IMG/VR virus record: IMGVR_UViG_3300030060_004363
Span: 1 to 24,946 of that record
Direction: 5' to 3' (one strand)
Origin: a virus
Length of the DNA stretch: 24,946 nt
In this document: positions 4,513-23,990 of the stretch, piece by piece
Numbering within the stretch: the stretch's first letter is position 1
How the letters are laid out: each line of letters begins with the position of its first letter
Made by a program: the position numbers and the translations under genes
Notes under the pieces: model-generated
What the model saw: only the letters and a program-made list of their open reading frames with translations
Database searches by the model: none
Told to the model about the DNA's origin: nothing

Positions 4513-7500
4513 CTAGATATCTGCTTCGCCCATAATCCTATTTCCCCTTTGAATGAGTGCCTCTAGATTTTCGCGCAACCGTTCCGTGATCTTTTCCTTT
4601 TGATCGTCGGTCAAGTTTTGGTTAGCGTCTACCTGTCTTAGCTTTCTTAAAAGCCTATTCCTTGCGCTATTGATGGCTCTAATCTTTCCGAACACAGACA
4701 GTTCTTTTTGATATCTGCTCCTGACATCTCTCACTGATGATGGGTCTCCACCCTCAATCGCGCTTTCAAGCACCTCTCTGGCTTTCAGAACCTTGTTCCT
4801 GTTCTCGATAAAGCCTGAGACATCTTCTCTCTCAGATACGCTGTAGAACACTTTGCGCAAGAACGGTGTTTGCCTAACAAACTCGTCTTCAAAGCCCTCT
4901 GAAAGAGCCTCTGGCATGGTTTTCGTCGTAAAGTCTATGGTCCTGTTTACAAACATACCAGCACCACCAGTTAGATAGTTCAGCCAGTAGTCAATGATAT
5001 CGGGCGAGAAGTCGAGCAGACCACTTTCCACCTGACTACCGCCGGTTGCCTTGTTGATATTGTCAGCTACCCACTTCAAAGATGGGCTGGTGGTTGACCA
5101 GTACAGTTGACTGTTTGGTGGCGGCGTTGGGTCGAATGGACTTGTCTCTTTGACGATGGGCCGACCAGAGAACTCTTCTTCGTTTCGCATTATATCAACA
5201 AATGGGTCTGCGATTGTCGGGGCTGCAAAGTTAAAGAAGTTGTTTGTGCCGCCAAGTGGGTTCAGCGCGTCTGCTGCCGTCATAAAGATACTGGATGTGG
5301 CTTCTCCAATATCGTATCCGCCCCTTAACGAGCGACTTAACGCACGGCCAAGATTGTAGCCGATGTTCAAGCCATACGGCAGGGGTATGGAAAGGTGAGA
5401 CCGCTCTGACGGACCCAACCCTCCCAAGGGCAGCAGGATATTATGTTCAAGAATGTATTCTGGGGCCTTGTCGTATACCAACTCACCATCCTCATCCTCA
5501 TCTGAGAAGGCTGCGTTTAGTTGGTCGAATGCCACACCGGCCATTATTGTTGAAACCCATATCTTGCGAACTTTGGATGAACGTGTGGCTGCATTGATAA
5601 GGGCAAACGAGCCTTGCAGCGAGGCGTTATAGAACAGATAGACAGAGTTCATAAAGGGCTTAAACTCCCCGCCCTTAGCGAAGTCTACCGTCACGTTTCT
5701 CGCCGCAAATGCGGCCCGTTCAAACCCTATCTTTGGTGCAAGAGATTTAAATGCTGCAACACGAATGGCGTTTTCAACGACCGTGTTGTAGTCATCAAGA
5801 AGATTGAAAAGCGATCCTACCTTTTCGCCGACAAAGCTGTTTTTCACGGAGTTCCATTTCCCTCTGGCTCCGCTTTCAGCGATGTCTCCAACTATGCCCT
5901 TGATACCGTTAAGCTGGTCTTGGAGGGTGTCCATCGTGTTGAGGGCATTTTGACCTCCGTATATTTGGAAGAGACGAAACACATCTGCCGGACTTGCTTT
6001 GTTGATGTCAAAGTCCGCAGCCTCTGCCATTTCTTTTGTGATGCCAGACGGCAGTTCAAGTTTACCTGTCTGCTTGTTCTTACGCATTCCACGCACAACA
6101 TCTTTGACCCCCTTGAAGGAGGACAGATAGTTTGTTTTTAGCTCACTTGTCAGGCCATCAATTTCATATTGATTGATGTTCACACCTGCTGTTTGCAGGT
6201 CTCTGAAAAGGTTAGTTATCAAAAACTCTGGGTTGTATGTGGTGTTGATGTTTGACAGGTATCTATTGACCTTGCCAAAGCCACGGACAATGCCTGACAA
6301 AGTTTCGTTAGATACACCAGTTGCACCCTTGAGGGCCTTGGCAACTCGCGGGTCTAGGGTCTTGATGAGAACCTCTTTGCCACCCTCTTTGACAACAATT
6401 ATTGAGTCGTCGTTTTTGGCTTGGAAGTCATAGATCATCTTGACCGCGCCTTCTACCAAGCCTCGGCGCATGGGAGGGCTTTGTAACTCGACGGCAGTTC
6501 TAGACATCAACTCTGGCTGCGACCTGATCAGATTTAAAAACGACTGACCTACTGCATTCTTCTCTGACCTGATAACAGCATTTTGATTTTGCATGAATGT
6601 GCCGGCAAGTATGCTGGTTGCATACTCGTATCTACCAAGCATGCGTCTGTCTTCCTTGCCCCTGATGCTGAATGTCTGTCCACGGGCCGCGCCAAACGAA
6701 CCATCTTCGCTTGCCTCGCCCTCTGGATCTAATATTCCCCTGAGAGGCACATATTCTTGGAAGTTTGGTGCGTCTACCTTCTCACCCTGCTCATTCACAT
6801 CTACTTGGCCGGTGTTGAAGTCTTCTGGGATCAGGCCGCCCTCAACACGAACCTTGTTGGTGTCGGCCACAATATCTCTGACGATGGACCTAACATCCTC
6901 TAGAACCTGTCTGTTCTTTGCATCAAGACTGTTTACCCAGTTAATTATCCTGTCTGCCTCTGAGTCCTGCATTCCAGAGCCAGCGTCTTCGCCGGGATTG
7001 ATCGATCTTATGTATTCATTTCTTTCTTTGGCATGCAGCGCGTATAGATATGCGTCTGTTACAGCAAGTCTTCTGCTTCCTGTGTTTTTCTCTGAGTTTC
7101 TGACAAATTCGCTGGCAGCAGCGAGCGCCTCGTAATTTGTACCCGCGTCTAAATCGAGTTCTTTTACCTTGTTTGCCGCTGGCTCATAGAGGGCATTCTT
7201 TGCTTCTTCTATACGGTTGCCAACGCGGCCATGGTACAAGCTCTCTTGCAAGTATGGATCAAACGCATCATCGATTGTTGCACCCTGCGCTCGCAGCCTG
7301 TCTACAACTTGCGCGATGGGAAGGAACCTGTCTTGGAACAGATCGCCAAAGGTATTGGCTGCTTTTTCTGCCGCTTGGTCACTGCCCAAAGTTGCCAGTT
7401 TCAACGCCTTTTTCAGAACATCATATGACTTAGAATAGACAATGCTGTTCTGTGCTTGTCTGATGTGTGCCGATGAAAAATCAACTGGCAATGACGACTG

Positions 7501-10500
7501 ATCAACTATGCGTCTTTTATAATCCTTTTGTCTTGGGAAGGCTGTTGCTACAGTGTATATGCCATCTCCAGACCGTAGTCTCTTGGGAGGTATGAACGCC
7601 AAATCAACAACTATGGGCGGCGATTTTCTTAGGGGCCTGTTCATGATCAGCCTGATACTTTTACCGGCACCAAGCTCACTAATTACTTCTTGACCGTCTC
7701 TGTAGCCCTGTTTTGCCCAAGTCTCCATTACATCAAATATTGGCTGCTCTATATCTGTGTATTTGCTGCTTTCGATAAACTCCTGAACGTGATTCCGCTG
7801 TATAATGTGGTGCAAGCCAAAATCTGCGAGGAATGGCACTCTATATCCAGTTGACTTGTCTTGACCAACCATAAGAGCCACTGGATACTGACCGAAATTG
7901 TCCTTTATCAAACCAAATGTTGTTGGATTTTTTAGGGTTGATATATCTCCTTTGGCCGCGGCCTTTTTCGCCTTAGGATTGTACAGAAGCTGGAACGGCT
8001 TATCCAAGGGGAGTTGAGATAAATCAACATCTGACAAAGCCTGATCTCTAGACTGATCAGAGAAATCTTGAATAGCCGCCTGTTCTTCATTTGTAAGGTT
8101 TTCTGTGAACGCCTCTTGAGCTTCAGGATCGCTGAACTTTTTTACGTCCATAGGGCTGAATATTGCTGCGGCCCTGCCTATGCTGCTGTCAGACCAATAG
8201 CCCACATAGCCAGCATCATTGATCATCTTTTCTAAGATACTTAGCTGTAGACTGGTGGTGTCTGCTGCTCGTGACTGCTCCGAGAAAGGAACAACATCTC
8301 TTTCGGCAATCTCTCTAGCTTTTGTGCGGAAGCCATCGGGGTCAGATTTGATGTCGTACAAGGATGTGAGCGGGACTTTTGTTTCGTACCTATTCTTGCC
8401 CACGCCCCACTCAACTACATAACCGCCCTCTTGGCCCACCTCTAAACCAAAATAACTGCGAGGTGGATATATTTCTCCATATCTACCGCCAGCGCCGTGC
8501 ATCTTGCGCCTTATTTCCTCTTCCCCACGCATGCGGAAGTTAGACCCCTGACGCAGTGGGTCTATTGATTGCAGGTCTGATTTTTCTGAAAAATGCGTAA
8601 GGGTGACTAGGCCGTCTTCATCTGTCTGCGGAACGCCCTCTCTTGCAACGCCTCTCTGGACTGCTTGGCCCTCGACTCCAAGATCAGCCTCTCCTCTTCC
8701 ATCTCTTGCGCTTCTTCCGCCGATAGACCGGACATCTCCCGCTGTATCAGGTTGTCTAGCGCCTTCTCTGAGTTCTTGTCTTCCACGTTGTTTCTCCTGT
8801 GCAATAGGTAGCCCAGAAAAGTCTGAGGCTATCCCTTCTTCCATAGCAAAAGATGGAAGGATTGTCAGCTTTTGTGGTGCATAAACTGTATTTTCTCTGT
8901 CGGCTCTGTTCTGCTCTCCGAACGGACCAAAGTTTACCCACGAGTTTTGGCCTCGTGTTTCGCTTGTCATCGCTTGGGCAGCGAGTGGACTATACATCCT
9001 GTGATGTGCCTGCCATGCGTTCTCTTCACCACGAGCGGTGAATGTTGTCCCCTCTAAACCATGACCAAAGTAGTCGTGGACGATACGGAATATGTCATTG
9101 ATTGTTGCTGGCTCACCATCAATTATCTCGCCAGAGTCAGCAAGCATTGGGTTCTCTGCAATATCTTGCTCTGTAATCTCTGACTGACCGAATCCATCTT
9201 TCGTGGCAAACACGAACAGATGATTGTTATCCCTGATATCCTCAAGCACATCTCTTGATCCACCGGGATAGGGATTCGGACCCCTGATAAACTCTATTTC
9301 TATGCCAGTGTCTTTTACAAACTGCCACTGTGCCATCGTCTCTTCAGCCATGGCCTTGTAAGCAGCTTGAACATTTGGATCGAAGGGTGTGTTTTCGGCC
9401 TCTTCGTATGCGTTAGCAATTTTTGTAGCCAACTCCTGATCGACCTTTACATACTCTGACTGCCTTCTATTTGGCATGCCAACAGATGCCAGATATTTCG
9501 CCTTTGCCTCGTTAACAACAGGTATTGGGCCGATCAGGTTTGTCGGAAGATTAGGCAGCCTATCTATACTCGACACAGGCACAGATGACTGATCTGCTTC
9601 TATTTCAGATCTGCTTCTGACCATTCCGGGCAGCCCGGACTTTCTCTGTCCTATTTTCCCAGACTGAATGCCATCGAATATGTCCTCTACCTTTGCGAAA
9701 CCAGCAGCAGAGTGTACGTCTTGTACGCGCTTGAAGAAGTTCACAATGCGTTGGAAGAGAGTGAGCGGCCTGCCAGCAACCTTCAGCTTTCCATCAGCCC
9801 AAGCGCGGAACATTTCCGCTACAGCCTCTTCTGCAACTCTCTCGTTGTATGCTTCCTTGGACTCGTTCTGCCTCTGTTTGTTTATCTGCTTTGCCCTGTC
9901 GAGGAACGTGTAATTTCTCTCTACAAGCTCTCCGTCTTGAGAAACAACAAACCTTCGCTTCGATGCTGCGTTCTTGAGAACATCAAACTCTTTTTGAGTA
10001 AACAGGCCAGAGTCTCTCAAGGCGTGTATCACTTCGTGATTTAGGACACCTCTCAACTTATCAAGTCTCTGGGCCTGACTTAGAGATGGATCGTATATGC
10101 CCATGGCCAACGTAATTAGTTTGTTGGATGGCCTGTAGGAGCCTTCAACAATTCTGCCGCCGCCGTCATCAGATATGACAAACTCTGTACCAAGCTTTAC
10201 ACCAGCGCCCTTGCCAACAAGGGTTCTCAGGTCTTTTTTAAGCTGGCTGATTATTTTGGCTTCTTGTTGCTGATACTCAACTCTGGCTTCAGCTTTTGAT
10301 GCCTCTCTGGCAGCTGCCAGCGCAAGATTAGAATCCTCTTGCGTGAACTTCTGATCTTTAAGCTGACCCTGAGCCTGTGTTCTGCTGTCAATCGTGTCTA
10401 CTTGACGCTGAATATTTCTGGCCTCAGCGCGGGCAGCAAGCAGAGTCTTTTCTATTTGATCTCTTTGTTGTCTAGAAGCTAGTAGCGCGGCCTCTTGCTC

Positions 10501-12246
10501 CGTGGTGAGGTCGCCTATCTCCAGTATCTTTTCTTCTGTCTCTTGCTGCTTTTTTTGGTCAGCCTCTAGCCTGCTGATCTTTCTTTTTTGTGCTTCAACG
10601 AGATTCCTGAGAGGCTGGGCGGGGTCAGTTTGAAGCTCTTCCTCTGAGACTGCATCGAATTTATTAGGAGATGTTTGTGCAACAACTCTGTTGACCACCA
10701 TCTCGTCTCTGATTTTTTCGGCAGTCTCTCTGGTTACAGGCTTGCCCTTTTTCGTCTTAGCGACCTCTTGTATGCCCTCAATAGTTATTGCGCCATCTTC
10801 TTTGGCCTTTGCCACAGAGGCATCGTACTGATCTTGATTGAAGGGGCGTCTAGCCGTTGCTCTGTTTTCTGGGCGGTTGTCCAGAGCGCCAAGTTGATCA
10901 GCCTGTATCTGATCTGCCAGATCGTTAAGACCATAATCTCTTAATTCTGCCGGAGTGATGGTGTCTATTTGCTCTCTTTGTAATCCCTGACGGTTCAGCC
11001 CAACAGTCAACTGTGCGTTGTTATCTGGATCATCAGGAAGCTGCGAGACGTTTACAGGCTCATTGCCAGAATCGATCTTGTTTCTTTCTTCCTGCAACTT
11101 GGCTTGCGCCGCTGCCTCTTTCTCAAGGTTCAGCCCCTGACGAGCAACAGCTTGGGACACAGCTTCATCTGGAGCCAGATCAGCTTGTTTCTTTTCTGAT
11201 GCTGCTAAATCAGATTGTATTTCGGAGCCAAGTGCGCCTGCGTCTTGTAGGGCTTCGGACTCCAGCCTCTTTTGAGCCTGCTTTGGGCTTTCTCCCTTGA
11301 AGCCACCAACAAGACCTATGGCCTTACCGCCTATGGCACCACGGATGCCAGCTTCCATTATTCTGTCTACGTTATCGCCGCTGAAGAAATCTATGTTTTC
11401 ATCAACTATTTTTGCAGCAAGAAGATTGTTGGACTCTTGTATCCCCTCTGTCAGACCCTCTGTTACAGCGCCCTTTCCTCCGGCTATGAAAAGCCTAGAT
11501 ACGAGCGCCCTAGCCACCTCATCCCTGCCCTTTTTGGTCAGCCTATTTACAAGGGCTACAGGCAATATTGCATCAAGAGATGCGTTCACACTTCCAGTTA
11601 CAAATGCGAGTGCGGCCCGCTTCTCTCCTGTTTCCTCTAATATTGATGTGTATGCTTCAGGTATTGTTTGAGAGCCAGCCCCGGCAACAGAGCCGGAAAG
11701 AAAACCTATTCTTGTTCCCTTTTGAGCGGCTTTCTTGGCCGCATCTCCTACAAGTTTTTTAGCAAATCTTTCAGCGGACTTTTTGCCGACAAAACCACCA
11801 ATTCCACCACCAGCGATAGATGTGAGGATTGATGGGACAAACTGACCTATGGTTTCTGCGGCGTATACAGAAGCATCACCCAGATCTTCTATGTCTTTGT
11901 ACGTTGGTACAAATGATGGGGCCTCTCTGTTGATGGCCTCCATAGTCTCTTCATATTCTGCTAATTGCCTGTCTCTGTACTCATCAGCGCCAACAAGGTC
12001 AGCGGCCACGGCAGGCAGGGCGTCAGTGAGCAGTGCGCCTGTTTGCCTGATACCCCTATCAAGACCGCGCCTGAAGCCAGATATGATACCAGCCTCTTCT
12101 TCCTGCTCCGCTGGCGCAGCAGAGGCGTCTCCGAGGCCAACCAAGACCTCGTTTATCTTCTGCTGTTCTGTTTGATTGGGAGACAGGCCAGATATATTGA
12201 ACGGGTATACTCTGCCTGACTGTCCTTGGACGTATGTAATAGGCAT
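4513..12246 (-). CDS. giant polyvalent internal virion protein (2577 aa)
   Basis: The largest gene here, last in the late operon. In order: a hydrophobic/Gly-rich N-terminal part (about 137-215) that could insert into membranes; a Gln/Glu-rich coiled coil (~546-690); a zinc metallopeptidase motif HEVIH (737-741); an unassigned domain with HDYFGHG (1057-1063) and ETRGQNSW (from 1096); a charged linker; an ADP-ribosyltransferase-like domain (~1212-1370, starting LTHFS); a possible BECR-fold nuclease (~1425-1580, H1479/H1480, YTVATAFP near the end); and an LPD38-like region (~1990-2235, TTYNPEFLITNLFRDLQ onward). Such strings of enzyme domains mark phage 'polyvalent' proteins thought to enter the host with the DNA. 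Position matches T7 gp16, the last ejection protein. GGAG lies 5 bases upstream of the ATG. Two palindrome copies (7136, 11896) lie inside. Domain limits are estimates. Confidence 0.85.
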   Translation of the reverse strand: MPITYVQGQSGRVYPFNISGLSPNQTEQQKINEVLVGLGDASAAPAEQEEEAGIISGFRRGLDRGIRQTGALLTDALPAVAADLVGADEYRDRQLAEYEETMEAINREAPSFVPTYKDIEDLGDASVYAAETIGQFVPSILTSIAGGGIGGFVGKKSAERFAKKLVGDAAKKAAQKGTRIGFLSGSVAGAGSQTIPEAYTSILEETGEKRAALAFVTGSVNASLDAILPVALVNRLTKKGRDEVARALVSRLFIAGGKGAVTEGLTEGIQESNNLLAAKIVDENIDFFSGDNVDRIMEAGIRGAIGGKAIGLVGGFKGESPKQAQKRLESEALQDAGALGSEIQSDLAASEKKQADLAPDEAVSQAVARQGLNLEKEAAAQAKLQEERNKIDSGNEPVNVSQLPDDPDNNAQLTVGLNRQGLQREQIDTITPAELRDYGLNDLADQIQADQLGALDNRPENRATARRPFNQDQYDASVAKAKEDGAITIEGIQEVAKTKKGKPVTRETAEKIRDEMVVNRVVAQTSPNKFDAVSEEELQTDPAQPLRNLVEAQKRKISRLEADQKKQQETEEKILEIGDLTTEQEAALLASRQQRDQIEKTLLAARAEARNIQRQVDTIDSRTQAQGQLKDQKFTQEDSNLALAAAREASKAEARVEYQQQEAKIISQLKKDLRTLVGKGAGVKLGTEFVISDDGGGRIVEGSYRPSNKLITLAMGIYDPSLSQAQRLDKLRGVLNHEVIHALRDSGLFTQKEFDVLKNAASKRRFVVSQDGELVERNYTFLDRAKQINKQRQNESKEAYNERVAEEAVAEMFRAWADGKLKVAGRPLTLFQRIVNFFKRVQDVHSAAGFAKVEDIFDGIQSGKIGQRKSGLPGMVRSRSEIEADQSSVPVSSIDRLPNLPTNLIGPIPVVNEAKAKYLASVGMPNRRQSEYVKVDQELATKIANAYEEAENTPFDPNVQAAYKAMAEETMAQWQFVKDTGIEIEFIRGPNPYPGGSRDVLEDIRDNNHLFVFATKDGFGQSEITEQDIAENPMLADSGEIIDGEPATINDIFRIVHDYFGHGLEGTTFTARGEENAWQAHHRMYSPLAAQAMTSETRGQNSWVNFGPFGEQNRADRENTVYAPQKLTILPSFAMEEGIASDFSGLPIAQEKQRGRQELREGARQPDTAGDVRSIGGRSARDGRGEADLGVEGQAVQRGVAREGVPQTDEDGLVTLTHFSEKSDLQSIDPLRQGSNFRMRGEEEIRRKMHGAGGRYGEIYPPRSYFGLEVGQEGGYVVEWGVGKNRYETKVPLTSLYDIKSDPDGFRTKAREIAERDVVPFSEQSRAADTTSLQLSILEKMINDAGYVGYWSDSSIGRAAAIFSPMDVKKFSDPEAQEAFTENLTNEEQAAIQDFSDQSRDQALSDVDLSQLPLDKPFQLLYNPKAKKAAAKGDISTLKNPTTFGLIKDNFGQYPVALMVGQDKSTGYRVPFLADFGLHHIIQRNHVQEFIESSKYTDIEQPIFDVMETWAKQGYRDGQEVISELGAGKSIRLIMNRPLRKSPPIVVDLAFIPPKRLRSGDGIYTVATAFPRQKDYKRRIVDQSSLPVDFSSAHIRQAQNSIVYSKSYDVLKKALKLATLGSDQAAEKAANTFGDLFQDRFLPIAQVVDRLRAQGATIDDAFDPYLQESLYHGRVGNRIEEAKNALYEPAANKVKELDLDAGTNYEALAAASEFVRNSEKNTGSRRLAVTDAYLYALHAKERNEYIRSINPGEDAGSGMQDSEADRIINWVNSLDAKNRQVLEDVRSIVRDIVADTNKVRVEGGLIPEDFNTGQVDVNEQGEKVDAPNFQEYVPLRGILDPEGEASEDGSFGAARGQTFSIRGKEDRRMLGRYEYATSILAGTFMQNQNAVIRSEKNAVGQSFLNLIRSQPELMSRTAVELQSPPMRRGLVEGAVKMIYDFQAKNDDSIIVVKEGGKEVLIKTLDPRVAKALKGATGVSNETLSGIVRGFGKVNRYLSNINTTYNPEFLITNLFRDLQTAGVNINQYEIDGLTSELKTNYLSSFKGVKDVVRGMRKNKQTGKLELPSGITKEMAEAADFDINKASPADVFRLFQIYGGQNALNTMDTLQDQLNGIKGIVGDIAESGARGKWNSVKNSFVGEKVGSLFNLLDDYNTVVENAIRVAAFKSLAPKIGFERAAFAARNVTVDFAKGGEFKPFMNSVYLFYNASLQGSFALINAATRSSKVRKIWVSTIMAGVAFDQLNAAFSDEDEDGELVYDKAPEYILEHNILLPLGGLGPSERSHLSIPLPYGLNIGYNLGRALSRSLRGGYDIGEATSSIFMTAADALNPLGGTNNFFNFAAPTIADPFVDIMRNEEEFSGRPIVKETSPFDPTPPPNSQLYWSTTSPSLKWVADNINKATGGSQVESGLLDFSPDIIDYWLNYLTGGAGMFVNRTIDFTTKTMPEALSEGFEDEFVRQTPFLRKVFYSVSEREDVSGFIENRNKVLKAREVLESAIEGGDPSSVRDVRSRYQKELSVFGKIRAINSARNRLLRKLRQVDANQNLTDDQKEKITERLRENLEALIQRGNRIMGEADI
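7136..7153. promoter_or_regulatory. degenerate copy of the 18-bp palindrome inside the giant gene
   Basis: TTTGTAC-CCGC-GTCTAAA matches 12 of 14 arm positions with the standard 4-base spacer. The left arm is perfect. It lies in coding sequence, so function is less certain than for the perfect copies. Confidence 0.35.
11896..11913. promoter_or_regulatory. 18-bp palindromic operator-like site, perfect copy 3, inside the giant gene
   Basis: TTTGTAC-GTTG-GTACAAA is identical in both arms to the junction copies, yet it encodes residues FVPTYK about 112 residues into the giant protein. It lies some 330 bases after the gene's start, where a bound protein could block elongation or anchor a loop. Confidence 0.65.
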
Positions 12247-12248
12247 TT

Positions 12249-14546
12249 TTACTCCGGTGAAGCTACATCAAACATACCTAAACCGCCACCACCCATGCCA
12301 AACGCTTGTTGCTCAAGCAAGTCGGCGAACAAAACATTTCTAATTTTTTCCTGTTCGGTGGCTAATGGGTCATTGGCCAGTTTTCTGAACGCCTCTGCTC
12401 TTTGAAGCATTTGATTCTTGGTGAACTCTTGGCCGCTCTTTTTTTGCAATTTTGCTTTAGCATTGATCAGATCAACGACACCTTCTTGATATCTGTCTTG
12501 CGCCTCACGGAATGCGGTCAGACCGCTGACGCCAGCCTCTCCCACCGCTCCAAGAAGCGTAGGCTCTTTGGATGACATGAGAGCCAAGCCAGCTTGTGCC
12601 AAAGCCAGATACTTGTCTGTCTCCCTGTCTTTTTCTAGCTTTGCCTGAAGGTCTGCTATCTCTTTTGCAAGTCCAGTTTGAGGTGTTGACTCATCATCTG
12701 AGGCCCCTCTCTCTGGCTTCGCTTTAGATTCCGGCATGGTTGGCGGCGCAGTTGGGGCGCTACCAAGATCGTCGCCATCTCTGCCATCATCAAGGCTTGC
12801 TAAATATTCAGCCCTTTCCCCCGGCTGTTCTGCGCCTCTCTGACTTGCTCTGATTATTCTTTCGACCTCTTTCTTCGCATCCTCAACGGTCTTCGAGGCT
12901 GCCTCACTATCGCCTGCCATAGCCTTTTCTGTAGCTTCCTCTGCTGCCTGTTTGGTGAAATCAGCAGTGGCTTCTTGTGAGCCTACATCAGAGAATGGCA
13001 TCGCTCTAGAGGCCGGGGAATCTCCGGCCATTCCATCAACGTCAACATTCCTGCCAAAAAATGCCCTATATTCAGACGGAGACATTGGCTTTTTGCCTGC
13101 CATTCTGGCCCGCCTTACATGGGCTTTGTATTCATCACTCTCTCCAGTGATCTGATCCCCATAAATCTCTTCAAGATATTCTTGTTGTTCGCCCCGAGCC
13201 TGCCCAAGAAGATCTTGTCTTGATCCAACCCTCTCTGAGGTTGGGACGTTTGCGTCCCTTCCCAATGCAAAAAGCTCACCAAGACTAGACGGGAAAGGAA
13301 CGCCGCCCTTGTTGGCCTGCATCTCATCGAATATTTCTTGCGGCGCACCCACCTCAGTCATTGCTGGTCCAGCCCCCTGCGCCTGTGCCGTGCTTATGGG
13401 GTTAATTGCTGATGCGATTTTGGATATGATTCCCGGCTCATCAGAGCCACCGAGGATACGAGCCACCTCTTCTGGATCATCTGTGCCAGCAGCCTCAATG
13501 GCGCGAGATATCTGACCTTGTGAATATCTGTCACCAAAATCACGCCCCTGCTCAAAGCCCACGATAGCGGGTATCAACTCATCTCTGCGCGACTTCAGGT
13601 CAAACTCTTCATCAGGGTCCATGCCAAGCTGTTCACCAAGATACGAGACATAGTTGTCAAAACTAGCTTCGTTATCAGACCTTGGGGCATATCTTGATGT
13701 TAGGCCACGCAAGGTGTTGATGCCATACTCATCGCTGTATGTGCCAAGAAGTCTAGCAAGAGCGCGTAAGCCCTCTTCCTCTGAGCCAAACTGGGCGTAA
13801 CCGCTACCTTGGCCCGTCTCACCTATAAAACCAGCACCGGGGCGTATGTTTCCGGGGTTGTTCTGACGCAAGCCAAGTGGAAGCCCATTGGCAGCCCTTA
13901 CAACACCACCCTCATCATACTTTTGAACTGGGGAGGGCATAACCTGAAGCTCTGCAACAGGGTTTGATTGAGCGCGTAGGGTTGCCATCCGGTTCATGCC
14001 CAGCATCGCGCCGCCCTTGCCGCCCGTTCTAGTTCTTCCAAAGGGATTGGGCATACTCGTACCCATAGTAGGGGCCGGAAATCCCTGATTAGGGAAATTT
14101 GGCACCGGCATAATAGACTGACCAGAGCCAAATGATCCAGAATCAACGCCAAACTCTGTCTGAGCCATCTGCTCTACTTCGTCTAAAAACGGATCTATTT
14201 GTTCGTTTTTTGTTTTTTCAGCTAGGCTTCTTTGTATCTCTGCACCGAACTGCATAAGGCCGCCAGACCTCATCGCTTTTTGTACCATGGTACTTTTTGG
14301 TGCCATGGCCTCAGACATGCCCGCAATGCCGCTCTGAGGAACGCCAGCAGACGCGACCGCCTCTTGCGCCACCGTGGGCTGCTGTGCGGCCTCACGCTTT
14401 GTAAAGTCATCGCGAACACGCTTGCGGCGCTTGATCTCACTAAGGACAAGAAACTGAGGCGCAGACCCTGTTGGAGACTGCATTTCGGAGACAAGCTGTT
14501 GTTCTGAAAAATTTTTAAGCTGATCTTGAATATCAATTATGTTCAT
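12249..14546 (-). CDS. internal virion protein with NNPGN muramidase-like domain (765 aa)
   Basis: Three parts are visible. Residues 1-110 (LSEIKRRKRVRDDFTKREAA then SGIAGMSEAM) are a helical head with a style common to phage internal proteins. A Pro/Gly/Met-rich linker follows and ends in YDEGGVVRAANG. Residues ~224-350 begin LGLRQNNPGNIRP and continue through YAQFGSEEEGLRAL and FDNYVSYLGEQLG, the 'NNPGN' domain of phage virion-associated muramidases/transglycosylases that open the cell wall during DNA entry. The rest is acidic and disordered, then a helix ending with LALAQAGLALMSSKEP and a membrane-like GLTAF stretch. The gene lies between a likely ejection protein and the giant gene and overlaps the former by 4 bases. 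The cell-wall role is inferred from the domain. Confidence 0.75.
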   Translation of the reverse strand: MNIIDIQDQLKNFSEQQLVSEMQSPTGSAPQFLVLSEIKRRKRVRDDFTKREAAQQPTVAQEAVASAGVPQSGIAGMSEAMAPKSTMVQKAMRSGGLMQFGAEIQRSLAEKTKNEQIDPFLDEVEQMAQTEFGVDSGSFGSGQSIMPVPNFPNQGFPAPTMGTSMPNPFGRTRTGGKGGAMLGMNRMATLRAQSNPVAELQVMPSPVQKYDEGGVVRAANGLPLGLRQNNPGNIRPGAGFIGETGQGSGYAQFGSEEEGLRALARLLGTYSDEYGINTLRGLTSRYAPRSDNEASFDNYVSYLGEQLGMDPDEEFDLKSRRDELIPAIVGFEQGRDFGDRYSQGQISRAIEAAGTDDPEEVARILGGSDEPGIISKIASAINPISTAQAQGAGPAMTEVGAPQEIFDEMQANKGGVPFPSSLGELFALGRDANVPTSERVGSRQDLLGQARGEQQEYLEEIYGDQITGESDEYKAHVRRARMAGKKPMSPSEYRAFFGRNVDVDGMAGDSPASRAMPFSDVGSQEATADFTKQAAEEATEKAMAGDSEAASKTVEDAKKEVERIIRASQRGAEQPGERAEYLASLDDGRDGDDLGSAPTAPPTMPESKAKPERGASDDESTPQTGLAKEIADLQAKLEKDRETDKYLALAQAGLALMSSKEPTLLGAVGEAGVSGLTAFREAQDRYQEGVVDLINAKAKLQKKSGQEFTKNQMLQRAEAFRKLANDPLATEQEKIRNVLFADLLEQQAFGMGGGGLGMFDVASPE
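14279..14296. promoter_or_regulatory. degenerate palindrome copy with perfect GTAC-N4-GTAC core
   Basis: TTTGTAC-CATG-GTACTTT keeps the left arm and the GTAC-N4-GTAC core (14282-14293) but loses the right AAA. It is inside the 765-aa gene, about 250 bases after its start. It may be a weak site or chance. Confidence 0.3.
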
Positions 14547-15433
14547 AGGCCCTGTACCCCTTTATACAAGCCAAGACCAGCTATTCCTGTCCCAAGAAGT
14601 TGTTGCAACGGATTGACGTTTTGGAACTTTTGAAGCTCTGTTGATGGAGTTACCGGAATACCTCTTGCTAGAGCCGACAGGAACATCAACTGTTCTTTGT
14701 CAAAGTCTCTCTGACGAATAAAGTCTTCATAAGCCATATCGATGCCAGCTTGATCTTTAGCCTCTATGTCCTTTCCTATGGTCTCCAAGAGCTTCGCGCT
14801 TTCTATGTCGCTGGCCCTATCTTGACCGCCCAATCCAGCCAGAAGCTCTGCCGCGCCAAGCCCTATTCTTTCTGCGTCCGCTCGTGCTGACCTGTCTCGC
14901 TCAAACTGTTGCTGTGCCTGTTCAAATGCCTGCTGCTGCCCCGATGCCTGTATTTCTGCAAGCTGCCTACTAAGCGCCTCACCGGCAAGGCCCTCTTGAA
15001 CTGCGGCTCTGCTGCCGCCAAACGCTCCAGCCTGCACAGCTTGCGCGGCTCTACCTGCCCCCGCCCTCTGCGCGTCCAGAATTGCTTGTTCCTTTTGAAC
15101 ATCTACCACCTTTTGCATATATGGAGACATATATTGATCGGCAGTAGCGGCATCAAATTGACCGGCTTTGAATCCAGAACCCAATTCAGCCCTGCCCATG
15201 GCTTCGGCAAGCCCTTCGACCCCAGAGCCAGCAATTTGTCTTGCTTTGTCCCTGCCTGCAATAACATCTGCTGTATCTTCAGCTATACGCTGGCCTTCGT
15301 AAGCCTCGTATGGCTGATTGGAAATGCCTTCTCCCCTATTAAGTATTCTTTTGACATAGGGTTCGATATATGGCGGAAGATTTGTTTGTGTGATGGTCTG
15401 CTCTGCTGGAGCCGATGACCTGCCCTTACCCAT
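14543..15433 (-). CDS. internal virion / ejection-type protein (296 aa)
   Basis: The N-terminus, QTITQTNLPPYIEPYVKRIL followed by YEAYEGQRIA, is a pattern I recognise in podovirus internal or tail-associated proteins. The middle is an Ala/Gln/Arg-rich helix (about 115-200, including RAGAGRAAQAVQAGAFGGSR and QQAFEQAQQQFERD), suited to a coiled-coil tube. The C-terminus is more hydrophobic with a Gly-rich end (LLGTGIAGLGLYKGVQGL). By place and composition it resembles the T7 gp14/gp15 level of the ejection apparatus, but direct homology cannot be judged. It overlaps the GNAT-like gene by 8 bases and the 765-aa gene by 4. Confidence 0.65.
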   Translation of the reverse strand: MGKGRSSAPAEQTITQTNLPPYIEPYVKRILNRGEGISNQPYEAYEGQRIAEDTADVIAGRDKARQIAGSGVEGLAEAMGRAELGSGFKAGQFDAATADQYMSPYMQKVVDVQKEQAILDAQRAGAGRAAQAVQAGAFGGSRAAVQEGLAGEALSRQLAEIQASGQQQAFEQAQQQFERDRSARADAERIGLGAAELLAGLGGQDRASDIESAKLLETIGKDIEAKDQAGIDMAYEDFIRQRDFDKEQLMFLSALARGIPVTPSTELQKFQNVNPLQQLLGTGIAGLGLYKGVQGL

Positions 15434-16849: not shown

Positions 16850-17296
16850 CTACTCCGATAGCGCCCGCATTCTGCTTACTAATCTTCTAGCACGATTTGG
16901 GACTTGAGTGTACCACCTCGAATCGACCATCTCGTCCGCTGCCTTGTTCCAATCCCTTGCATCAACTCCAGCCTTCATGCCCTTGAATTTGGAGAGACGA
17001 GGCCTTCCCATATTAAACATCATGTTGCAGATGATATGCTGACATTCCTCGGGTAAATCATCAAAGTCTGGATACAGAACTTTGCACTCGTCTACGGTCA
17101 CAGCCATGTCAAGGTTAAACACTTTCTGCACTCTTTCCTGCTCAATTACCGTGCCAACAGGCTGACCGTACTCCTCATCATCCTTGGTAATTAGGTGGCC
17201 AATTCCGAAAGTGGGTAGGTGGAGATGATCTAAGTAGATTTCGTACTTGCAGCCTTCGTCCTCTGCAATTTCTGTCCTCAACTTATCTATATTCAC
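16850..17296 (-). CDS. T4-type lysozyme endolysin (GH24)
   Basis: A 148-aa muramidase that hydrolyses the glycan strands of peptidoglycan at lysis. The active-site pattern of T4 lysozyme is complete: E14 in the DEG motif, D23 in YLDH and T29 in PTFGIGHL, at the same spacings as E11, D20 and T26 of T4. The C-terminal part has NMMFNMGRPRLSKF and RRLVSRMRAL, typical of the second lobe. No signal peptide or SAR segment is visible, so it should rely on the holin. The start is a GTG at 17296, overlapping the preceding stop (GTGA), with GGAGG 5 bases upstream. Confidence 0.9.
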   Translation of the reverse strand: MNIDKLRTEIAEDEGCKYEIYLDHLHLPTFGIGHLITKDDEEYGQPVGTVIEQERVQKVFNLDMAVTVDECKVLYPDFDDLPEECQHIICNMMFNMGRPRLSKFKGMKAGVDARDWNKAADEMVDSRWYTQVPNRARRLVSRMRALSE

Positions 17297-17994
17297 TTGC
17301 CCCTCCCCATCTTTAGAAGGTTTTCGAGTAGAGTTCCTTTGGGCTTACTTGCTTCGTACTCTGCTCTACCTTGAGCCGCTGTAGGAGTGCCGCCGGGAAG
17401 CATCCTAGCCTCAATCATCTTTCTCTTTTCTTGGGGGAGCATCTTAACCAAAAGCCCAATGCCGCCGGGGATCATTTCTGCAACGCCCCTGCCCGTGCTT
17501 TTGGGAACAGGAACATCGGCCACATCACCCAGATACGTCTCCTTGGGGCTTCCAAATGAATCAAGGCCATATCTGACCTCACCAGTTTCTGGATTGCCCC
17601 CCACTTCATCCCCAAAGATGTTGGTCCTCGCAAACGGATTGCGATACCTGTCATACGCCAAATCCATGAGTCCCCGTCTGGTCTTTTCATCCATAAGACC
17701 AGAGTAATCAATGCTTGAAGGTGGCCGTTTGGCAGCCCTTGTATACAATCCTTGAATGCCAAACGGATTAGTAAGGGTTATTTGATTTTTAGCAAAGAAT
17801 TGCTCTTTGGTCAGAATGTCATCTAATCCGCCAGTGGCCCCGTAAATAGCCTGCGCCACTCTCGCGGGATCATTGACCTGACTGAATACGTCAGTCGTAT
17901 TCGCTCCCCCACCGGGATATCTTTCGCCGCCAGCATCAGTGATCTGCTGTGCGAGAGGTACTGGCTCTGATTTTCCTATACCCGGTTCTGGCAT
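17293..17994 (-). CDS. unknown protein between holin and lysozyme (233 aa)
   Basis: No known domain is recognised. The protein is Gly/Pro-rich, with MPEPGIGKSEPVPLAQQITD at the start, a section NPFGIQGLYTRAAKRPPSS, and FARTNIFGDEVGGNPETG. It ends in a basic region MLPQEKRKMIEARMLPGG. No signal peptide or clear membrane helix was seen (a short hydrophobic GIGLLVKML near residue 180). It starts in a TAATG overlap with the holin stop. It may be a lysis accessory or a small virion protein; neither is supported beyond location. Confidence 0.6.
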   Translation of the reverse strand: MPEPGIGKSEPVPLAQQITDAGGERYPGGGANTTDVFSQVNDPARVAQAIYGATGGLDDILTKEQFFAKNQITLTNPFGIQGLYTRAAKRPPSSIDYSGLMDEKTRRGLMDLAYDRYRNPFARTNIFGDEVGGNPETGEVRYGLDSFGSPKETYLGDVADVPVPKSTGRGVAEMIPGGIGLLVKMLPQEKRKMIEARMLPGGTPTAAQGRAEYEASKPKGTLLENLLKMGRGK

Positions 17995-18389
17995 TACTTT
18001 GTGATCCCTTTTACCTTTTCTACAGTCCTGAGACCGCCAAGACCCAACATACCCAACAGAACAGTCATCAGGCTGTCCATATCAAAGGTCGGTAGCTCCG
18101 GTATCTCTATCCCTAAGTATGAACATATGAACATTGTGACAGGGGCGAGAACAAAATGCCATGCCATAGCGAAAGAAAGACACCAGCCAAGGAATGGACG
18201 CCATCCTGCAACGAATATAGACCTATGCTGCGCCTCTGCCTTGTTGATCTCTATCTGACCCATATTGGCTTCGTGCATCTGCTTTTCAGCCATGGTCGCT
18301 ATTTCATGCGCCAACTTCGCTTTCTGATCCTTGTCCTCTATGAACTTGTCCAAAAGGCCCGTAACTGGTCCAATTAACGCCTGTAACAT
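17994..18389 (-). CDS. GTA-type three-TM holin
   Basis: A 131-aa membrane protein. The N-terminal third is a Lys/Glu-rich amphipathic helix, then HRSIFVAGWRPFLGWCLSFA opens one or two membrane segments (about residues 62-92). A last segment MTVLLGMLGLGGLRTVEKVK closes the protein. The WRPFxGW and LLGMLGLGGLRTxEK motifs are the hallmark of the GTA_holin_3TM family, which makes the pores that let the lysozyme reach the wall. I choose the ATG at 18389: GGGAG (18400-18404) is then 10 bases upstream, whereas a GTG at 18398 would be one base from it. The gene lies between the EF-hand protein and the 233-aa unknown, with lysozyme next. Confidence 0.85.
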   Translation of the reverse strand: MLQALIGPVTGLLDKFIEDKDQKAKLAHEIATMAEKQMHEANMGQIEINKAEAQHRSIFVAGWRPFLGWCLSFAMAWHFVLAPVTMFICSYLGIEIPELPTFDMDSLMTVLLGMLGLGGLRTVEKVKGITK

Positions 18390-18408
18390 TGCTAACACTC
18401 TCCCTGTT

Positions 18409-21351: not shown

Positions 21352-22779
21352 CTACGTTTTAATCATGTAGTTTAAGACTATTGTAGGCTGCACATTGTTG
21401 TGTGCGCTGCCGCTGCCTGTTGAGCCGGATGTGCCAGAAACATCCAATGTGACCGTCGTAAAAGCATCTCCGTTAGTCGACCCAAGATTTCGACCTGACT
21501 GGTTTTCGCCGCTAGAAGTTCTTTGTGTTGTGTTAGCGACATAAGACCCATCACTATGAGTGTGCGCAGCAAGCTGCGCGGTGGTTAGAGTGTGTGTTTC
21601 GGAACCGCCTGTCGCACCGAGGGTGTCACCATTAAGGCCACCAGTCTGGTTGGTCAGTCTGTCGGCACTTGTGACGCTCTCGGCGTTCATATCGTCTTTA
21701 CCAGCCACCACGCGGCCACGAAGGTCGGGAAGATTGAATGTGCTAGAGCCGTCTCCCGTTCCATAAATTGTGCCGATTGCAGCGAACAGTGTCGCATAAG
21801 TGCTTCGACTGACAGCCTGACCGGCGCACAATAAGAACCCAGAAGGGAGGTTTGTGTGAGCGCGCGCAGTCGGGAAAACAGTTCCTGCTGGGACAGCTGA
21901 AGATATGTCATCAGAAAGAGCCACGGTCCCAGATGCGTCGGGGAATGTAATCGTGCGGTCAGCAGTAGGATCGGTTACAGCAAACGTAGTTTCGTGATCA
22001 TCAGCGGTAGCACCTTCAAAAACTATACTGCCGCCGTTGACCGTAAAGTTTCCAGAGACGATAAACTGTCCAGTGCCGTTGGGCGTAACGGTGATATCCC
22101 CATTTGCACCATCGGCAATAACAACCGTGCCAGAGTTTGTACCGCTGTTGGTACTAAGAGTAAGGTCGCCTGTGCCGTTGGTGGTGATGGCCGCATCCGC
22201 GTCCGCGTCTCCTACACGAAGAGTGTCCGCGTCCACCTGAACGTCACCTGTTCCATTGGGCGCAAGGACGATGTTACCGTTGGAAGTTGTTACAATGCTT
22301 TTGCCGTTGACATCTAAGTTGTCACCCAGCTTTGCGCCCACATTGACTTTTGTTACGATAGAGTTTGACCCGGTGCCGTTGGCAAAAATAAAAGCTGTTT
22401 CTCCATTAATAAGTGAAACTTCTCCGTCGTTCGATGAGCTTGCACCTCCACCATCTCCATCACCCTGTTGAAAAGTAATTGTTTGGCCGGTGCTGTTTTG
22501 TACAAGATAAAATTTATCTTGATCATTAGGCGTTATGGTGAGTGTGGCGGGGCCACCCAAACTATCGTTGGTGAGCAGTAAAACTTTGTGACCACCGTTT
22601 GATACTGCACCATCAGTAGTTGTAAGATTTGCGCTTGCTGAAACAGGTAGACTTAAAACCCCGTTAACTGCTGCATCAATGATATCGAAATTGGTGTTGG
22701 TTGTTGTACCCCAAGTACCTGCTTGTTCGCCAGAGCCGGGCTTCTCTATGCCAAGATTGTCCGTATATGTAGAAGCCAT
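21352..22779 (-). CDS. tail fibre with phage tail-collar domain (475 aa)
   Basis: The first ~30 residues (NLGIEKPGSGEQAGTWGTTT) form the usual attachment end of podovirus fibres. The middle is a series of beta units with NGTGD motifs (about 175-240) and then ETTFAVTDPTADRTITFPDA (263-282), a common shaft motif. Residues 296-360 are the Collar domain (PAGTVFPTARAH..., FLLCAGQAVSRSTYATLFAA, FNLPDLRGRVVAG). The end has AAHTH (H406, H408) and HNNVQPTIVLNYMIKT, the T4 gp12-like tip where histidines can bind a metal. It should contact the host surface. The ATG follows directly after the previous stop (TAAATG). Confidence 0.85.
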   Translation of the reverse strand: MASTYTDNLGIEKPGSGEQAGTWGTTTNTNFDIIDAAVNGVLSLPVSASANLTTTDGAVSNGGHKVLLLTNDSLGGPATLTITPNDQDKFYLVQNSTGQTITFQQGDGDGGGASSSNDGEVSLINGETAFIFANGTGSNSIVTKVNVGAKLGDNLDVNGKSIVTTSNGNIVLAPNGTGDVQVDADTLRVGDADADAAITTNGTGDLTLSTNSGTNSGTVVIADGANGDITVTPNGTGQFIVSGNFTVNGGSIVFEGATADDHETTFAVTDPTADRTITFPDASGTVALSDDISSAVPAGTVFPTARAHTNLPSGFLLCAGQAVSRSTYATLFAAIGTIYGTGDGSSTFNLPDLRGRVVAGKDDMNAESVTSADRLTNQTGGLNGDTLGATGGSETHTLTTAQLAAHTHSDGSYVANTTQRTSSGENQSGRNLGSTNGDAFTTVTLDVSGTSGSTGSGSAHNNVQPTIVLNYMIKT

Positions 22780-23802
22780 TTAGTTCACCGTTTCTGTCCA
22801 AGTCTGTGAGTTAGTGTTTGCATTTACGTCTGTCCAAGTGTCGCCCGTGTGCGTAATATCAGACCACGTTTCAGCAGTTTCTCCGGCGTTGATTTCCACA
22901 AATTTTAATTCACCGTTTGTAGATTGTACCACCAAGAACACAATATCTGAAGCCCCAGCCCTTATCAGCCCCCCAAGAGTGTCTTGTGTAAATCCGAACT
23001 CTTGGTCAGACGAGGCTGCTTGTATCCTAGTGCCTATGCCAGTTTGTTCAAATAGAGCGGCAATATCTGCTTCAGCAACCCGTATACGAGTGCCTTGACT
23101 GGTTTGCGTTGCGCTAAATTCTTGTGTCGAAGCCCCGGAGATAACACGAACAGCAGCACTGCTTTGCGTGAAGTTGGAGGATACCGTAGACGTTCCAACA
23201 AGGATGCCAACGCCGACATTTACCGCCGATGACGTACCACTCAGATCCGCGCCGGTAACTAGTATTGCGACAGCGTTGCTAGTCTGCTCAAACAACGCCG
23301 ACAAAGTAGCGGAGTCATTTTGTATGCGGGTGCCAACTCCGGTTTGTTCAAACAATGCCGACAATGTGGCTGAATCTACTAAAGTAGCAGCGCCCGTAGA
23401 GGTTTGAGTAAAGTTAGCAGACTGCGTAGCCGTCGCTGTCTGTATACGAGTGCCAGTTGAAGTTTTGACGAAAATAGACGACTGCGTTGACTCGCCTAGT
23501 CGTAACCGCGTACCTGATGACGTTTTAATAAAGTTAACTTGCTGTGAGGATGTCCCAGTAAACAAGCCGATAGCGGCAGCAGACTCTGTAAAGTTGGATG
23601 ATATGGAAGAAGTGCCTACAAGGATGCCTACGCCTACGTTCACCGCACTGGCGGTGCCAACCATCTCGGATGTGCCAGAGCCTATGAAGACTGCGTTACT
23701 TGTTTGCGTAAAATTACTTGAAAGAGAAGCTGTGGCAGCTTTCGGCGCAAGGCCATACTGGAAGCCAAACGGCTCCTCTGAAAAACTGCCTGCGGCAAAC
23801 AT
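22780..23802 (-). CDS. 20-residue-repeat fibre or tail protein (340 aa)
   Basis: From residue 31 to 310 the protein is a chain of fourteen 20-residue repeats in strict register. Most units start FxQTS and continue with GTRI, followed by a Ser/Thr/Ala strand (for example FEQTGVGTRIQNDSATLSAL). Units 2 and 9 (51-70 and 191-210) are instead a variant with SAVNVGVGILVGTS. A short end (311-340) has three Trp motifs, ETWSDI, DTWTDV and QTWTET. Regular 20-residue strands fit a beta-solenoid shaft, but no fold is identified. It starts in a TAATG overlap with the 62-aa gene and lies between two fibre genes. Role as fibre shaft or adhesin is inferred. Confidence 0.7.
   Translation of the reverse strand: MFAAGSFSEEPFGFQYGLAPKAATASLSSNFTQTSNAVFIGSGTSEMVGTASAVNVGVGILVGTSSISSNFTESAAAIGLFTGTSSQQVNFIKTSSGTRLRLGESTQSSIFVKTSTGTRIQTATATQSANFTQTSTGAATLVDSATLSALFEQTGVGTRIQNDSATLSALFEQTSNAVAILVTGADLSGTSSAVNVGVGILVGTSTVSSNFTQSSAAVRVISGASTQEFSATQTSQGTRIRVAEADIAALFEQTGIGTRIQAASSDQEFGFTQDTLGGLIRAGASDIVFLVVQSTNGELKFVEINAGETAETWSDITHTGDTWTDVNANTNSQTWTETVN
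22873..23292 (-). repeat. super-repeat copy 2 (seven 20-aa units)
   Basis: Residues 171-310 of the 340-aa protein. Unit order is NAV-type, SAVNVGVGI-type, SSAAV-type, two GTRI-type and two degenerate units, the same order as residues 31-170. DNA identity to copy 1 is visibly lower than protein similarity. Confidence 0.6.
23293..23712 (-). repeat. super-repeat copy 1 (seven 20-aa units)
   Basis: Residues 31-170 of the 340-aa protein, 420 bases immediately abutting copy 2. The special SAVNVGVGILVGTS unit occurs second in each copy, exactly 140 residues apart, and the NAV and GTRI units also line up, indicating a duplicated seven-unit block. Confidence 0.6.
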
Positions 23803-23990
23803 TAGTCAGCGTCCGCAATGGTCAGGTCACCGGCTGCGACCTGTCGCATGATTTCGTCATAGTGGCGGTTTCCCGGAGCGAGGGGTACAAACACTTCTTC
23901 ACCATCAACGGTGCATTTAATCCCCGCATTTTCACTTGAAAGGTTCACGAAATATTGTGCGCTTGTAATATTCATCTCACCCATATTCAC
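23802..23990 (-). CDS. small protein between fibre genes (62 aa)
   Basis: A 62-residue acidic protein with ITSAQYFVNLSSENAGIKCT then EEVFVPLAPGNRHYDEIMRQ and a tail of Ala/Asp. The NRHYDEI motif recurs in small proteins next to phage tail genes; function is unknown. The frame opens with a GTG at 23990 in a GTGA overlap with the upstream stop; ATGs at 23984 and 23975 are alternatives, and the last gives the simplest N-terminus (MNITSAQY). It could be a fibre chaperone or tail assembly accessory, from location alone. Confidence 0.6.
   Translation of the reverse strand: MNMGEMNITSAQYFVNLSSENAGIKCTVDGEEVFVPLAPGNRHYDEIMRQVAAGDLTIADAD

What the first reader, a model, noticed from the sequence alone, without database searches (positions are those of the whole stretch)
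4513..12246. Giant polyvalent protein combining a protease and several toxin-like domains
One 2577-codon gene at the end of the late operon joins a metallopeptidase motif, an ART-like domain, a BECR-like nuclease candidate, an unassigned HDYFGH domain and an LPD38-like tail. Polyvalent proteins with such mixtures are proposed to be injected to protect phage DNA or disarm hosts. This is the best candidate for an undescribed anti-host system in the window. The protease motif may cut the protein into separate effectors.
Basis: partly seen in the sequence, partly recalled or inferred. Interest (0 to 1): 0.8.

Follow-up and report, generated by a model that had tools for sequence, protein, structure and literature searches.

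The report
Giant phage protein with unknown enzyme
This uncultured virus carries one 2577-residue protein that joins a protease, a toxin-like ADP-ribosylating domain, a nuclease-like domain and a widespread enzyme-like domain nobody has described; proteins of this kind are thought to be injected into bacteria with the viral DNA, and the undescribed domain also occurs in bacterial gene clusters for methionine and S-adenosylmethionine metabolism.

Summary
One intact 2577-aa gene fills 4513-12246, on the MINUS strand, last in the late (lysis / DNA-ejection) operon. It is a new member of a known kind, the phage polyvalent proteins of Iyer et al. 2017 (PMC5512222), with a Pfam LPD38 tail. The protease motif is a conserved zincin pair (HEVIH 737-741 and the acidic EEAVAEM 806-812). 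The ART-like region is supported by structure: the best fold match is AcrIF11 (6kyf), but the canonical Asp is missing. The nuclease-like region has PBECR-type features but no family or fold match.

It has a confident AlphaFold model (pLDDT 94.7), no PDB fold match, no Pfam or NCBIfam family, 16 invariant residues in 83 sequences, more than 590 viral loci, and 95 loci in GTDB genomes. Its stand-alone bacterial homologues sit in operons with S-adenosylhomocysteine hydrolase, homocysteine S-methyltransferase and trans-sulfuration genes. In relatives, whole domains have been swapped at linkers: L002 is a mosaic with a breakpoint near codon 1380-1440.

Injection, self-cleavage and toxicity are plausible but untested. 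Verdict: new variant of a known kind, with an undescribed enzyme-like domain worth pursuing.

The parts
4513..12246 (-). Giant polyvalent protein, 2577 aa (P0001), stop codon included
   Evidence: intact frame, RBS GGAG, 2 nt after the upstream stop
11257..12246 (-). Residues 1-330: N-terminal, Gly/Ala-rich helical region related to virion structural proteins and to the N-terminal part of phage virion RNA polymerases; putative packaging/ejection part
   Evidence: phrog_6958 'virion structural protein' E 3e-11 and phrog_2206 'virion RNA polymerase' E 6e-7
10327..11256 (-). Residues 331-640: charged linker region, likely coiled coil / disordered
   Evidence: sequence composition; no Pfam or PHROG match
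9592..10326 (-). Residues 641-885: zincin-type metallopeptidase-like domain
   Evidence: HEVIH and EEAxAEM conserved in 12 aligned sequences; no Pfam family match
10024..10038 (-). HEVIH (737-741), Zn-binding HExxH motif
   Evidence: HExxH in all rows
9811..9831 (-). EEAVAEM (806-812), downstream Glu (third zinc ligand candidate)
   Evidence: conserved in all rows
8743..9570 (-). Residues 893-1168: undescribed enzyme-like 'HDYFGH' domain (phrog_3170, function unknown)
   Evidence: 16 invariant residues in 83 sequences; pLDDT 94.7; no PDB fold match; own family in BFVD
9061..9081 (-). VHDYFGH 1056-1062 (H1057, D1058, H1062 invariant)
9004..9030 (-). GEENAWQAH 1073-1081 (E1074, H1081 invariant)
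8947..8964 (-). SETRGQ 1095-1100 (E1096, Q1100 invariant)
8077..8634 (-). Residues 1205-1390: ADP-ribosyltransferase-like domain (H1218, Y1265, E1279; canonical GYDG Asp replaced by V1348; loop Asp D1353)
   Evidence: model core pLDDT about 90-97; best PDB fold match 6kyf, prob 0.99, E 8.4e-3, TM(target) 0.54; conservation
8032..8109 (-). Linker 1380-1405; L002's switch from window-type to L003-type sequence falls in this linker and the start of the next domain
7477..8034 (-). Residues 1405-1590: BECR/PBECR-like nuclease candidate (H1480 in a helix, four strands, T1568 in the last strand)
   Evidence: no Pfam PBECR hit
5479..7464 (-). Residues 1595-2256: conserved C-terminal helical region shared with giant proteins of other podophages (phrog_616, phrog_14770)
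4921..5478 (-). LPD38 (2257-2442)
   Evidence: Pfam PF18857 E 2.4e-36, 4.7e-39
12249..14546 (-). Context: 765-aa putative internal virion protein immediately upstream (lysozyme / tape-measure-like PHROG matches)
   Evidence: phrog_873 E 3e-27, phrog_2276; syntenic in relatives
14543..15433 (-). Context: 296-aa DNA ejection protein
   Evidence: phrog_4287 E 1e-13; syntenic in relatives
16850..18398 (-). Context: lysozyme (16850-17296), a 233-aa ORF and holin (17994-18398) of the same operon

Best explanation
The gene encodes a phage polyvalent protein that is packaged in the virion with the DNA-ejection proteins and injected into the cell at the start of infection. The N-terminal region (1-330) and the conserved C-terminal region (1595-2577, ending in LPD38) serve packaging and delivery. 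The zincin between them cuts the protein at the disordered linkers and releases the enzymatic modules. These are an ART-like domain that modifies a host protein, a BECR-like RNase, and the HDYFGH domain, a metalloenzyme-like catalyst of an undescribed family that acts on a small molecule linked to the methionine / S-adenosylmethionine cycle. Shown here: the gene, the domain borders, motif conservation, purifying selection, the ejection-operon context and its synteny, the swapping of modules, and the lack of any known fold for HDYFGH. Inferred: virion location, injection, self-cleavage, catalysis and targets. My estimates: injected virion protein 0.8; HDYFGH is an enzyme 0.85; ART-like fold 0.75 and active 0.45; BECR-like RNase 0.55; zincin processes its own chain 0.4.
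For: Class: LPD38 E 2.4e-36; tail region matches giant proteins of many podophages (332 records match some part of the protein; the best matches cover 37-38% of it at the C-terminus); Iyer et al. [quoted passage not shown] Virion/ejection context: N-terminal matches to virion proteins and virion RNA polymerase. It lies directly after a DNA ejection protein and a 765-aa internal protein, and the order lysozyme-g332-g139-ejection-g765-giant is kept in L002, L013, L015, L016 and L017, with its distal part also in L003 and L177. Zincin: HExxH + EEAxAEM in 12 sequences. HDYFGH: 16 invariant residues in 83 sequences; model pLDDT 94.7 with H1057/D1058/H1062, E1074/H1081 and E1096/Q1100 on three successive helices; no PDB fold; more than 590 viral loci and 95 genome loci. 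Metabolic link: neighbours AdoHcyase, S-methyl_trans, Cys_Met_Meta_PP, Aminotran_5 and Methyltransf. ART-like: AcrIF11 fold match prob 0.99; H and Y conserved. Modularity: L002 mosaic; L003 carries another module in place of HDYFGH+ART.
Against: No virion proteomics exists for this phage. The Pfam models for ART-PolyVal, PBECR2 and PBECR3 do not recognise these domains. The ART family lacks the canonical Asp, and its loop Asp (D1353) is not kept in all relatives. The AcrIF11 match has E 8e-3 only. The ART+nuclease model is poor outside the ART core (mean pLDDT 69), and the nuclease region has no significant fold match. The zincin has no Pfam match and no cleavage site is known; Iyer et al. note that N4 virion RNA polymerase, which contains an MPTase, is packaged unprocessed (PMC5512222). 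The SAM-cycle link comes from cellular homologues at about 25-39% identity, which may have a different substrate.
Confidence: 0.6

Rival explanations
1. Mainly a structural ejection protein: like T7 gp16 or P22 gp16 it forms part of the conduit or protects DNA, and the enzyme-like domains are decayed passengers.
For: Long helical conserved N- and C-terminal regions and a position next to ejection proteins; the ART lost its canonical Asp.
Against: The enzyme-like domains are under strong purifying selection (dN/dS 0-0.06 for the zincin, HDYFGH and ART segments against L002). HDYFGH motifs are invariant over phages and bacteria, which passengers would not show.
Confidence: 0.2
2. The HDYFGH domain is a remote aromatic-amino-acid-hydroxylase-type non-haem iron enzyme (2-His-1-carboxylate).
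For: The same H-[DE]-x-x-G-H motif with a later Glu; cellular AAAH proteins read HDVFGH at the iron site; local hhalign match, prob 31%, over 47 columns.
Against: No AAAH among the PDB fold matches shown although the model is confident; the match is confined to the motif; global hhalign prob 0.1.
Confidence: 0.12
3. The HDYFGH domain is an HD-superfamily phosphohydrolase.
For: It has an invariant His-Asp pair, and a distant relative, LKA1 gp7, reads FRAFHDLGH.
Against: The upstream His of the HD superfamily is not among the invariant residues, and no HD-domain structure is among the matches shown, although many are solved.
Confidence: 0.07
4. The ART-like and nuclease-like domains are toxins that act between phages (superinfection exclusion or killing of satellites) rather than against host defence.
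For: Rapid swapping of modules between close relatives fits conflict with other mobile elements as well as with the host.
Against: Nothing specific; expression in the late/ejection operon fits early action in a new host just as well.
Confidence: 0.15

Closest known systems
Phage polyvalent proteins with LPD38 (Iyer et al. 2017, PMC5512222)
   Same: Size over 2000 aa, LPD38 (phage-type only), zincin-type peptidase, ART-like and BECR-like domains, position among virion genes, mosaic domains
   Different: Contains the HDYFGH domain, which no Pfam model recognises; its ART and nuclease are outside the Pfam ART-PolyVal, PBECR2 and PBECR3 models tested
Giant proteins of cyanophages Mel-JY33 (4017 aa) and Pag-Yong1 (2772 aa, annotated 'large polyvalent protein'), and of podovirus isolate ctQRb9 (3212 aa)
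   Same: Carry the HDYFGH domain at 42-52% identity; in Mel-JY33 and ctQRb9 the giant gene directly follows a 'lysozyme' gene
   Different: Other modules around it; only weak or no similarity in the tail region
Giant proteins of Vibrio phages such as D171 (2803 aa) and of vB_EcoP-type podophages
   Same: C-terminal about 950 residues homologous at 28-30% identity
   Different: No HDYFGH domain found by BLAST in D171
AcrIF11 (PDB 6kyf), anti-CRISPR ADP-ribosyltransferase (PMC12421852)
   Same: Best fold match of the ART-like domain; conserved His and Tyr; an acidic residue in the last loop, where AcrIF11 has its catalytic D115
   Different: No detectable sequence similarity; loop Asp not invariant; no evidence of a CRISPR target
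Pseudomonas phage LKA1 gp7 (188 aa, early region, phrog_7806)
   Same: Weak fold match to the HDYFGH model (E 0.09, prob 0.82) and the motif FRAFHDLGH
   Different: Small stand-alone early protein, spacing HDLGH instead of HDYFGH, function unknown; identified with the BFVD hit by its length and motif only

Membership tests
Phage polyvalent protein (Iyer et al. 2017) | Two or more domains of disparate biochemical type in one polypeptide | tested here: met
   Zincin pair, HDYFGH domain, ART-like fold, LPD38
Phage polyvalent protein (Iyer et al. 2017) | Encoded among virion / DNA-ejection genes | tested here: met
Phage polyvalent protein (Iyer et al. 2017) | Packaged in the virion and injected | not testable with these tools
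   Needs virion proteomics; N-terminal similarity to virion proteins is indirect
LPD38 (PF18857) | Score over the curated cut-off | tested here: met
   126 bits against cut-off 27
Zincin-like MPTase of polyvalent proteins | HExxH and a downstream Glu in a second helix | tested here: met
   HEVIH 737-741, EEAVAEM 806-812, conserved in 12 sequences; the helices themselves were not modelled
Zincin-like MPTase of polyvalent proteins | Match to a known MPTase family model | tested here: not met
   No MPTase-PolyVal match up to E 10. Filed as zincin-like only
ART, H-Y-D clade (Tox-ART-HYD2 / ART-PolyVal) | ART fold | tested here: inconclusive
   Core pLDDT about 90-97; best match AcrIF11 prob 0.99, E 8.4e-3, TM 0.54
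ART, H-Y-D clade (Tox-ART-HYD2 / ART-PolyVal) | His in strand 1 and Tyr in strand 2 | tested here: met
   H1218 in all rows; Y1265 in nearly all
ART, H-Y-D clade (Tox-ART-HYD2 / ART-PolyVal) | Asp in strand 5 (GYDG) | tested here: not met
   V1348 here; not acidic at that column in nearly all relatives. D1353 in the loop may take the role. Not filed as a member
ART, H-Y-D clade (Tox-ART-HYD2 / ART-PolyVal) | Match to Pfam ART-PolyVal | tested here: not met
   (only extra domains in L051 match)
PBECR nuclease | His in an N-terminal helix, four or five strands, Thr/Ser at the C-terminal strand | tested here: inconclusive
   H1480 and T1568 invariant in A4; secondary structure fits but pLDDT is low to moderate
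PBECR nuclease | Match to a Pfam PBECR model or a BECR structure | tested here: not met
   Filed as PBECR-like candidate only
Aromatic amino acid hydroxylase (PF00351) | Overall fold and profile | tested here: not met
   No AAAH in the PDB fold matches shown; hhalign local prob 31%, motif only
HD-domain phosphohydrolase | H...HD...D motif and fold | tested here: not met
   No upstream invariant His; no fold match

The most novel reading that the evidence does not exclude
The HDYFGH domain is the founding member of a new metalloenzyme family with a fold not yet in the PDB. Phages inject it to rewire or drain the host's methionine / S-adenosylmethionine / homocysteine pool at the first moment of infection, for example to disable SAM-dependent restriction or methylation, while bacteria use the same enzyme in a SAM-cycle-linked biosynthetic operon.
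Probability: 0.15. Interest if true: 0.85.

Novelty: new variant of a known kind. Interest (0 to 1): 0.58.

Why it matters
Polyvalent proteins were predicted in 2017, but many of their domains remain unassigned. Here one such domain is shown to be a large, strictly conserved enzyme-like family (more than 590 viral loci, 95 bacterial-genome loci) with a confident structure model that matches nothing solved. Its bacterial relatives come with a biochemical context, SAH hydrolase and homocysteine enzymes, which makes the substrate question testable with purified protein. If the phage versions touch SAM metabolism, that would be a virion-delivered analogue of the SAM-depleting enzyme that phage T3 makes after entry (T3 from general knowledge).

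Tried and rejected
Single-sequence Pfam and NCBIfam scans of slices gave nothing but LPD38. A single-protein scan of viral contigs found only three close relatives; an alignment of the HDYFGH domain was needed. Sequence profile searches of the PDB for the HDYFGH, ART and nuclease domains found only chance matches. AAAH and HD-phosphohydrolase readings of HDYFGH: see rivals. MuF fusion of the stand-alone HDYFGH proteins: no match over the cut-off in 16 records. The module that replaces HDYFGH+ART in L003 has no Pfam match. Literature searches found no paper on the HDYFGH family or the bacterial cluster, but only open-access papers are held. Promoter and terminator scans gave no more than shuffles.

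Full report
OBSERVATION. The gene is real: 2577 codons, ATG start, 4513-12246 on the minus strand; the finding gave no strand. A GGAG site precedes the ATG and the start lies 2 nt after the stop of the upstream gene. dN/dS against close relatives is 0-0.1 where measurable; the only higher value is 0.165, for the divergent MPT segment of L011. The window is the whole stored virus contig.

CONTEXT. Minus-strand genes run from tail fibre and tail collar proteins (21352-24946) through a head-type virion protein, holin, lysozyme, a DNA ejection protein (phrog_4287) and a 765-aa protein with lysozyme / tape-measure matches to the giant gene, which is last. The same order is kept in L002, L013, L015, L016 and L017, and its distal part in L003 and L177. 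On the other strand lie exonuclease, Sak-like annealing protein, SSB, HNH and an excisionase-like gene, so the virus is probably a temperate podovirus (inference).

DOMAIN MAP. 1-330: matches to virion structural proteins (E 3e-11) and N4-type virion RNA polymerase (E 6e-7). 641-885: zincin, with HExxH and EEAxAEM present in the 12 aligned sequences (AEA in the most distant one, L089). 893-1168: HDYFGH domain. 1205-1390: ART-like. 1405-1590: nuclease-like. 1595-2577: conserved tail with LPD38 at 2257-2442. Relatives keep the order zincin-HDYFGH-ART-(variable)-tail.

HDYFGH DOMAIN. The only family match is phrog_3170, unknown function. Over 83 sequences 16 residues are invariant, among them H1057, D1058, H1062, E1074, H1081, E1096 and Q1100 (residue number = alignment position + 892). 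Foldseek against the PDB finds nothing (best E 0.85, probability 0.03-0.05). Against BFVD it finds its own family (21 matches at E up to 1e-3, phage proteins where named), then weak matches to 160-200-aa proteins of podophages such as LKA1 gp7, an early gene with FRAFHDLGH. No Pfam or NCBIfam model fits phage or cellular members.

CELLULAR HOMOLOGUES. Stand-alone genes of about 240-300 aa occur in Bacteroidota (Aquimarina, Chryseobacterium, Aureispira), Gammaproteobacteria (Enterovibrio), Alphaproteobacteria (Ruegeria, Pelagibius) and Actinobacteria (Nocardia, Streptomyces, Micromonospora). In 11 of the 43 loci examined a SAH-hydrolase(-like) gene lies nearby, and a twelfth (L142) shows a similar ORF. 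In Bacteroidota and Enterovibrio the order is SAH-hydrolase-like, HDYFGH gene, then (in most) a 135-164-aa gene. In Actinobacteria and one gammaproteobacterium (L122) the cluster holds aminotransferase class V, a SAM methyltransferase, a Cys/Met-metabolism PLP enzyme, homocysteine S-methyltransferase, in several a SAH hydrolase, and an MFS transporter. SAH hydrolase is usually one gene per genome (general knowledge), so this is far beyond chance, although the loci are partly related by descent. The pathway is not identified.

ART-LIKE AND NUCLEASE-LIKE DOMAINS. The model of 1200-1595 is confident for the ART core only. Its best PDB match is 6kyf, AcrIF11 (prob 0.99, E 8.4e-3, TM 0.54 by target), an anti-CRISPR ADP-ribosyltransferase whose D115 and, in a homologue, H20/Y46 matter (PMC12421852). 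H1218 and Y1265 are conserved, but the canonical GYDG Asp is V1348; D1353 in the loop and the invariant E1279 are candidates. The nuclease-like region has His in a helix (H1480), four strands and T1568 in the last, as PBECR RNases do (PMC5512222), but no family model and no fold match supports it.

MODULARITY. L003 keeps the tail at 82% but carries an unrelated module where HDYFGH and ART sit here. L002 is mostly 95-99% identical in DNA over codons 1 to about 1380 (88-93% in two of the 50-codon blocks), then becomes L003-like (92% over codons 1451-1500, while L002 is 71% identical to the window there): a recombination joint in or just after the linker before the nuclease-like domain. This is what an arms race over injected effectors would produce; it also fits conflict with other phages.

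COMPARISON AND VERDICT. As a whole this is a new member of the polyvalent proteins (PMC5512222), so the 'undescribed anti-host system' claim is too broad. The HDYFGH family is the undescribed part. Injection, cleavage and all activities remain predictions.

Noticed in passing
L122:7965-15641; L126:7890-12885; L130, L142, L158: Bacterial cluster of HDYFGH gene, aminotransferase V, SAM methyltransferase, Cys/Met PLP enzyme, homocysteine S-methyltransferase, in several also SAH hydrolase, and MFS exporter: looks like an undescribed biosynthetic cluster.
   Followed up: partly
L107, L109, L110, L113, L117 around 6800-9200 (L113 2319-4725): Three-gene unit: short SAH-hydrolase-like protein (about 350 aa), HDYFGH protein, and a 135-164-aa protein; in L115 the last is fused to the HDYFGH protein.
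   Followed up: partly
L178:3662-4228 (phage LKA1 gp7): Early 188-aa protein of an Autographiviridae phage with FRAFHDLGH, a weak fold match to the HDYFGH model; possibly a minimal version used for host takeover.
   Followed up: partly
window 22780-23802 (-): 340-aa protein of the tail-fibre region with a weak match to Pfam TNT (NAD-glycohydrolase toxin; E 0.008, below the curated cut-off).
   Followed up: no
L003:6367-8085: A 573-aa module that replaces HDYFGH+ART in a close relative; no Pfam match.
   Followed up: partly
L051:2285-3691: Two further Pfam ART-PolyVal domains follow the ART-like domain in tandem in this relative.
   Followed up: no
L022-L037: A set of very similar stand-alone HDYFGH proteins of 473-489 aa with an extra N-terminal half of unknown nature, mostly in small viral contigs.
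   Followed up: no
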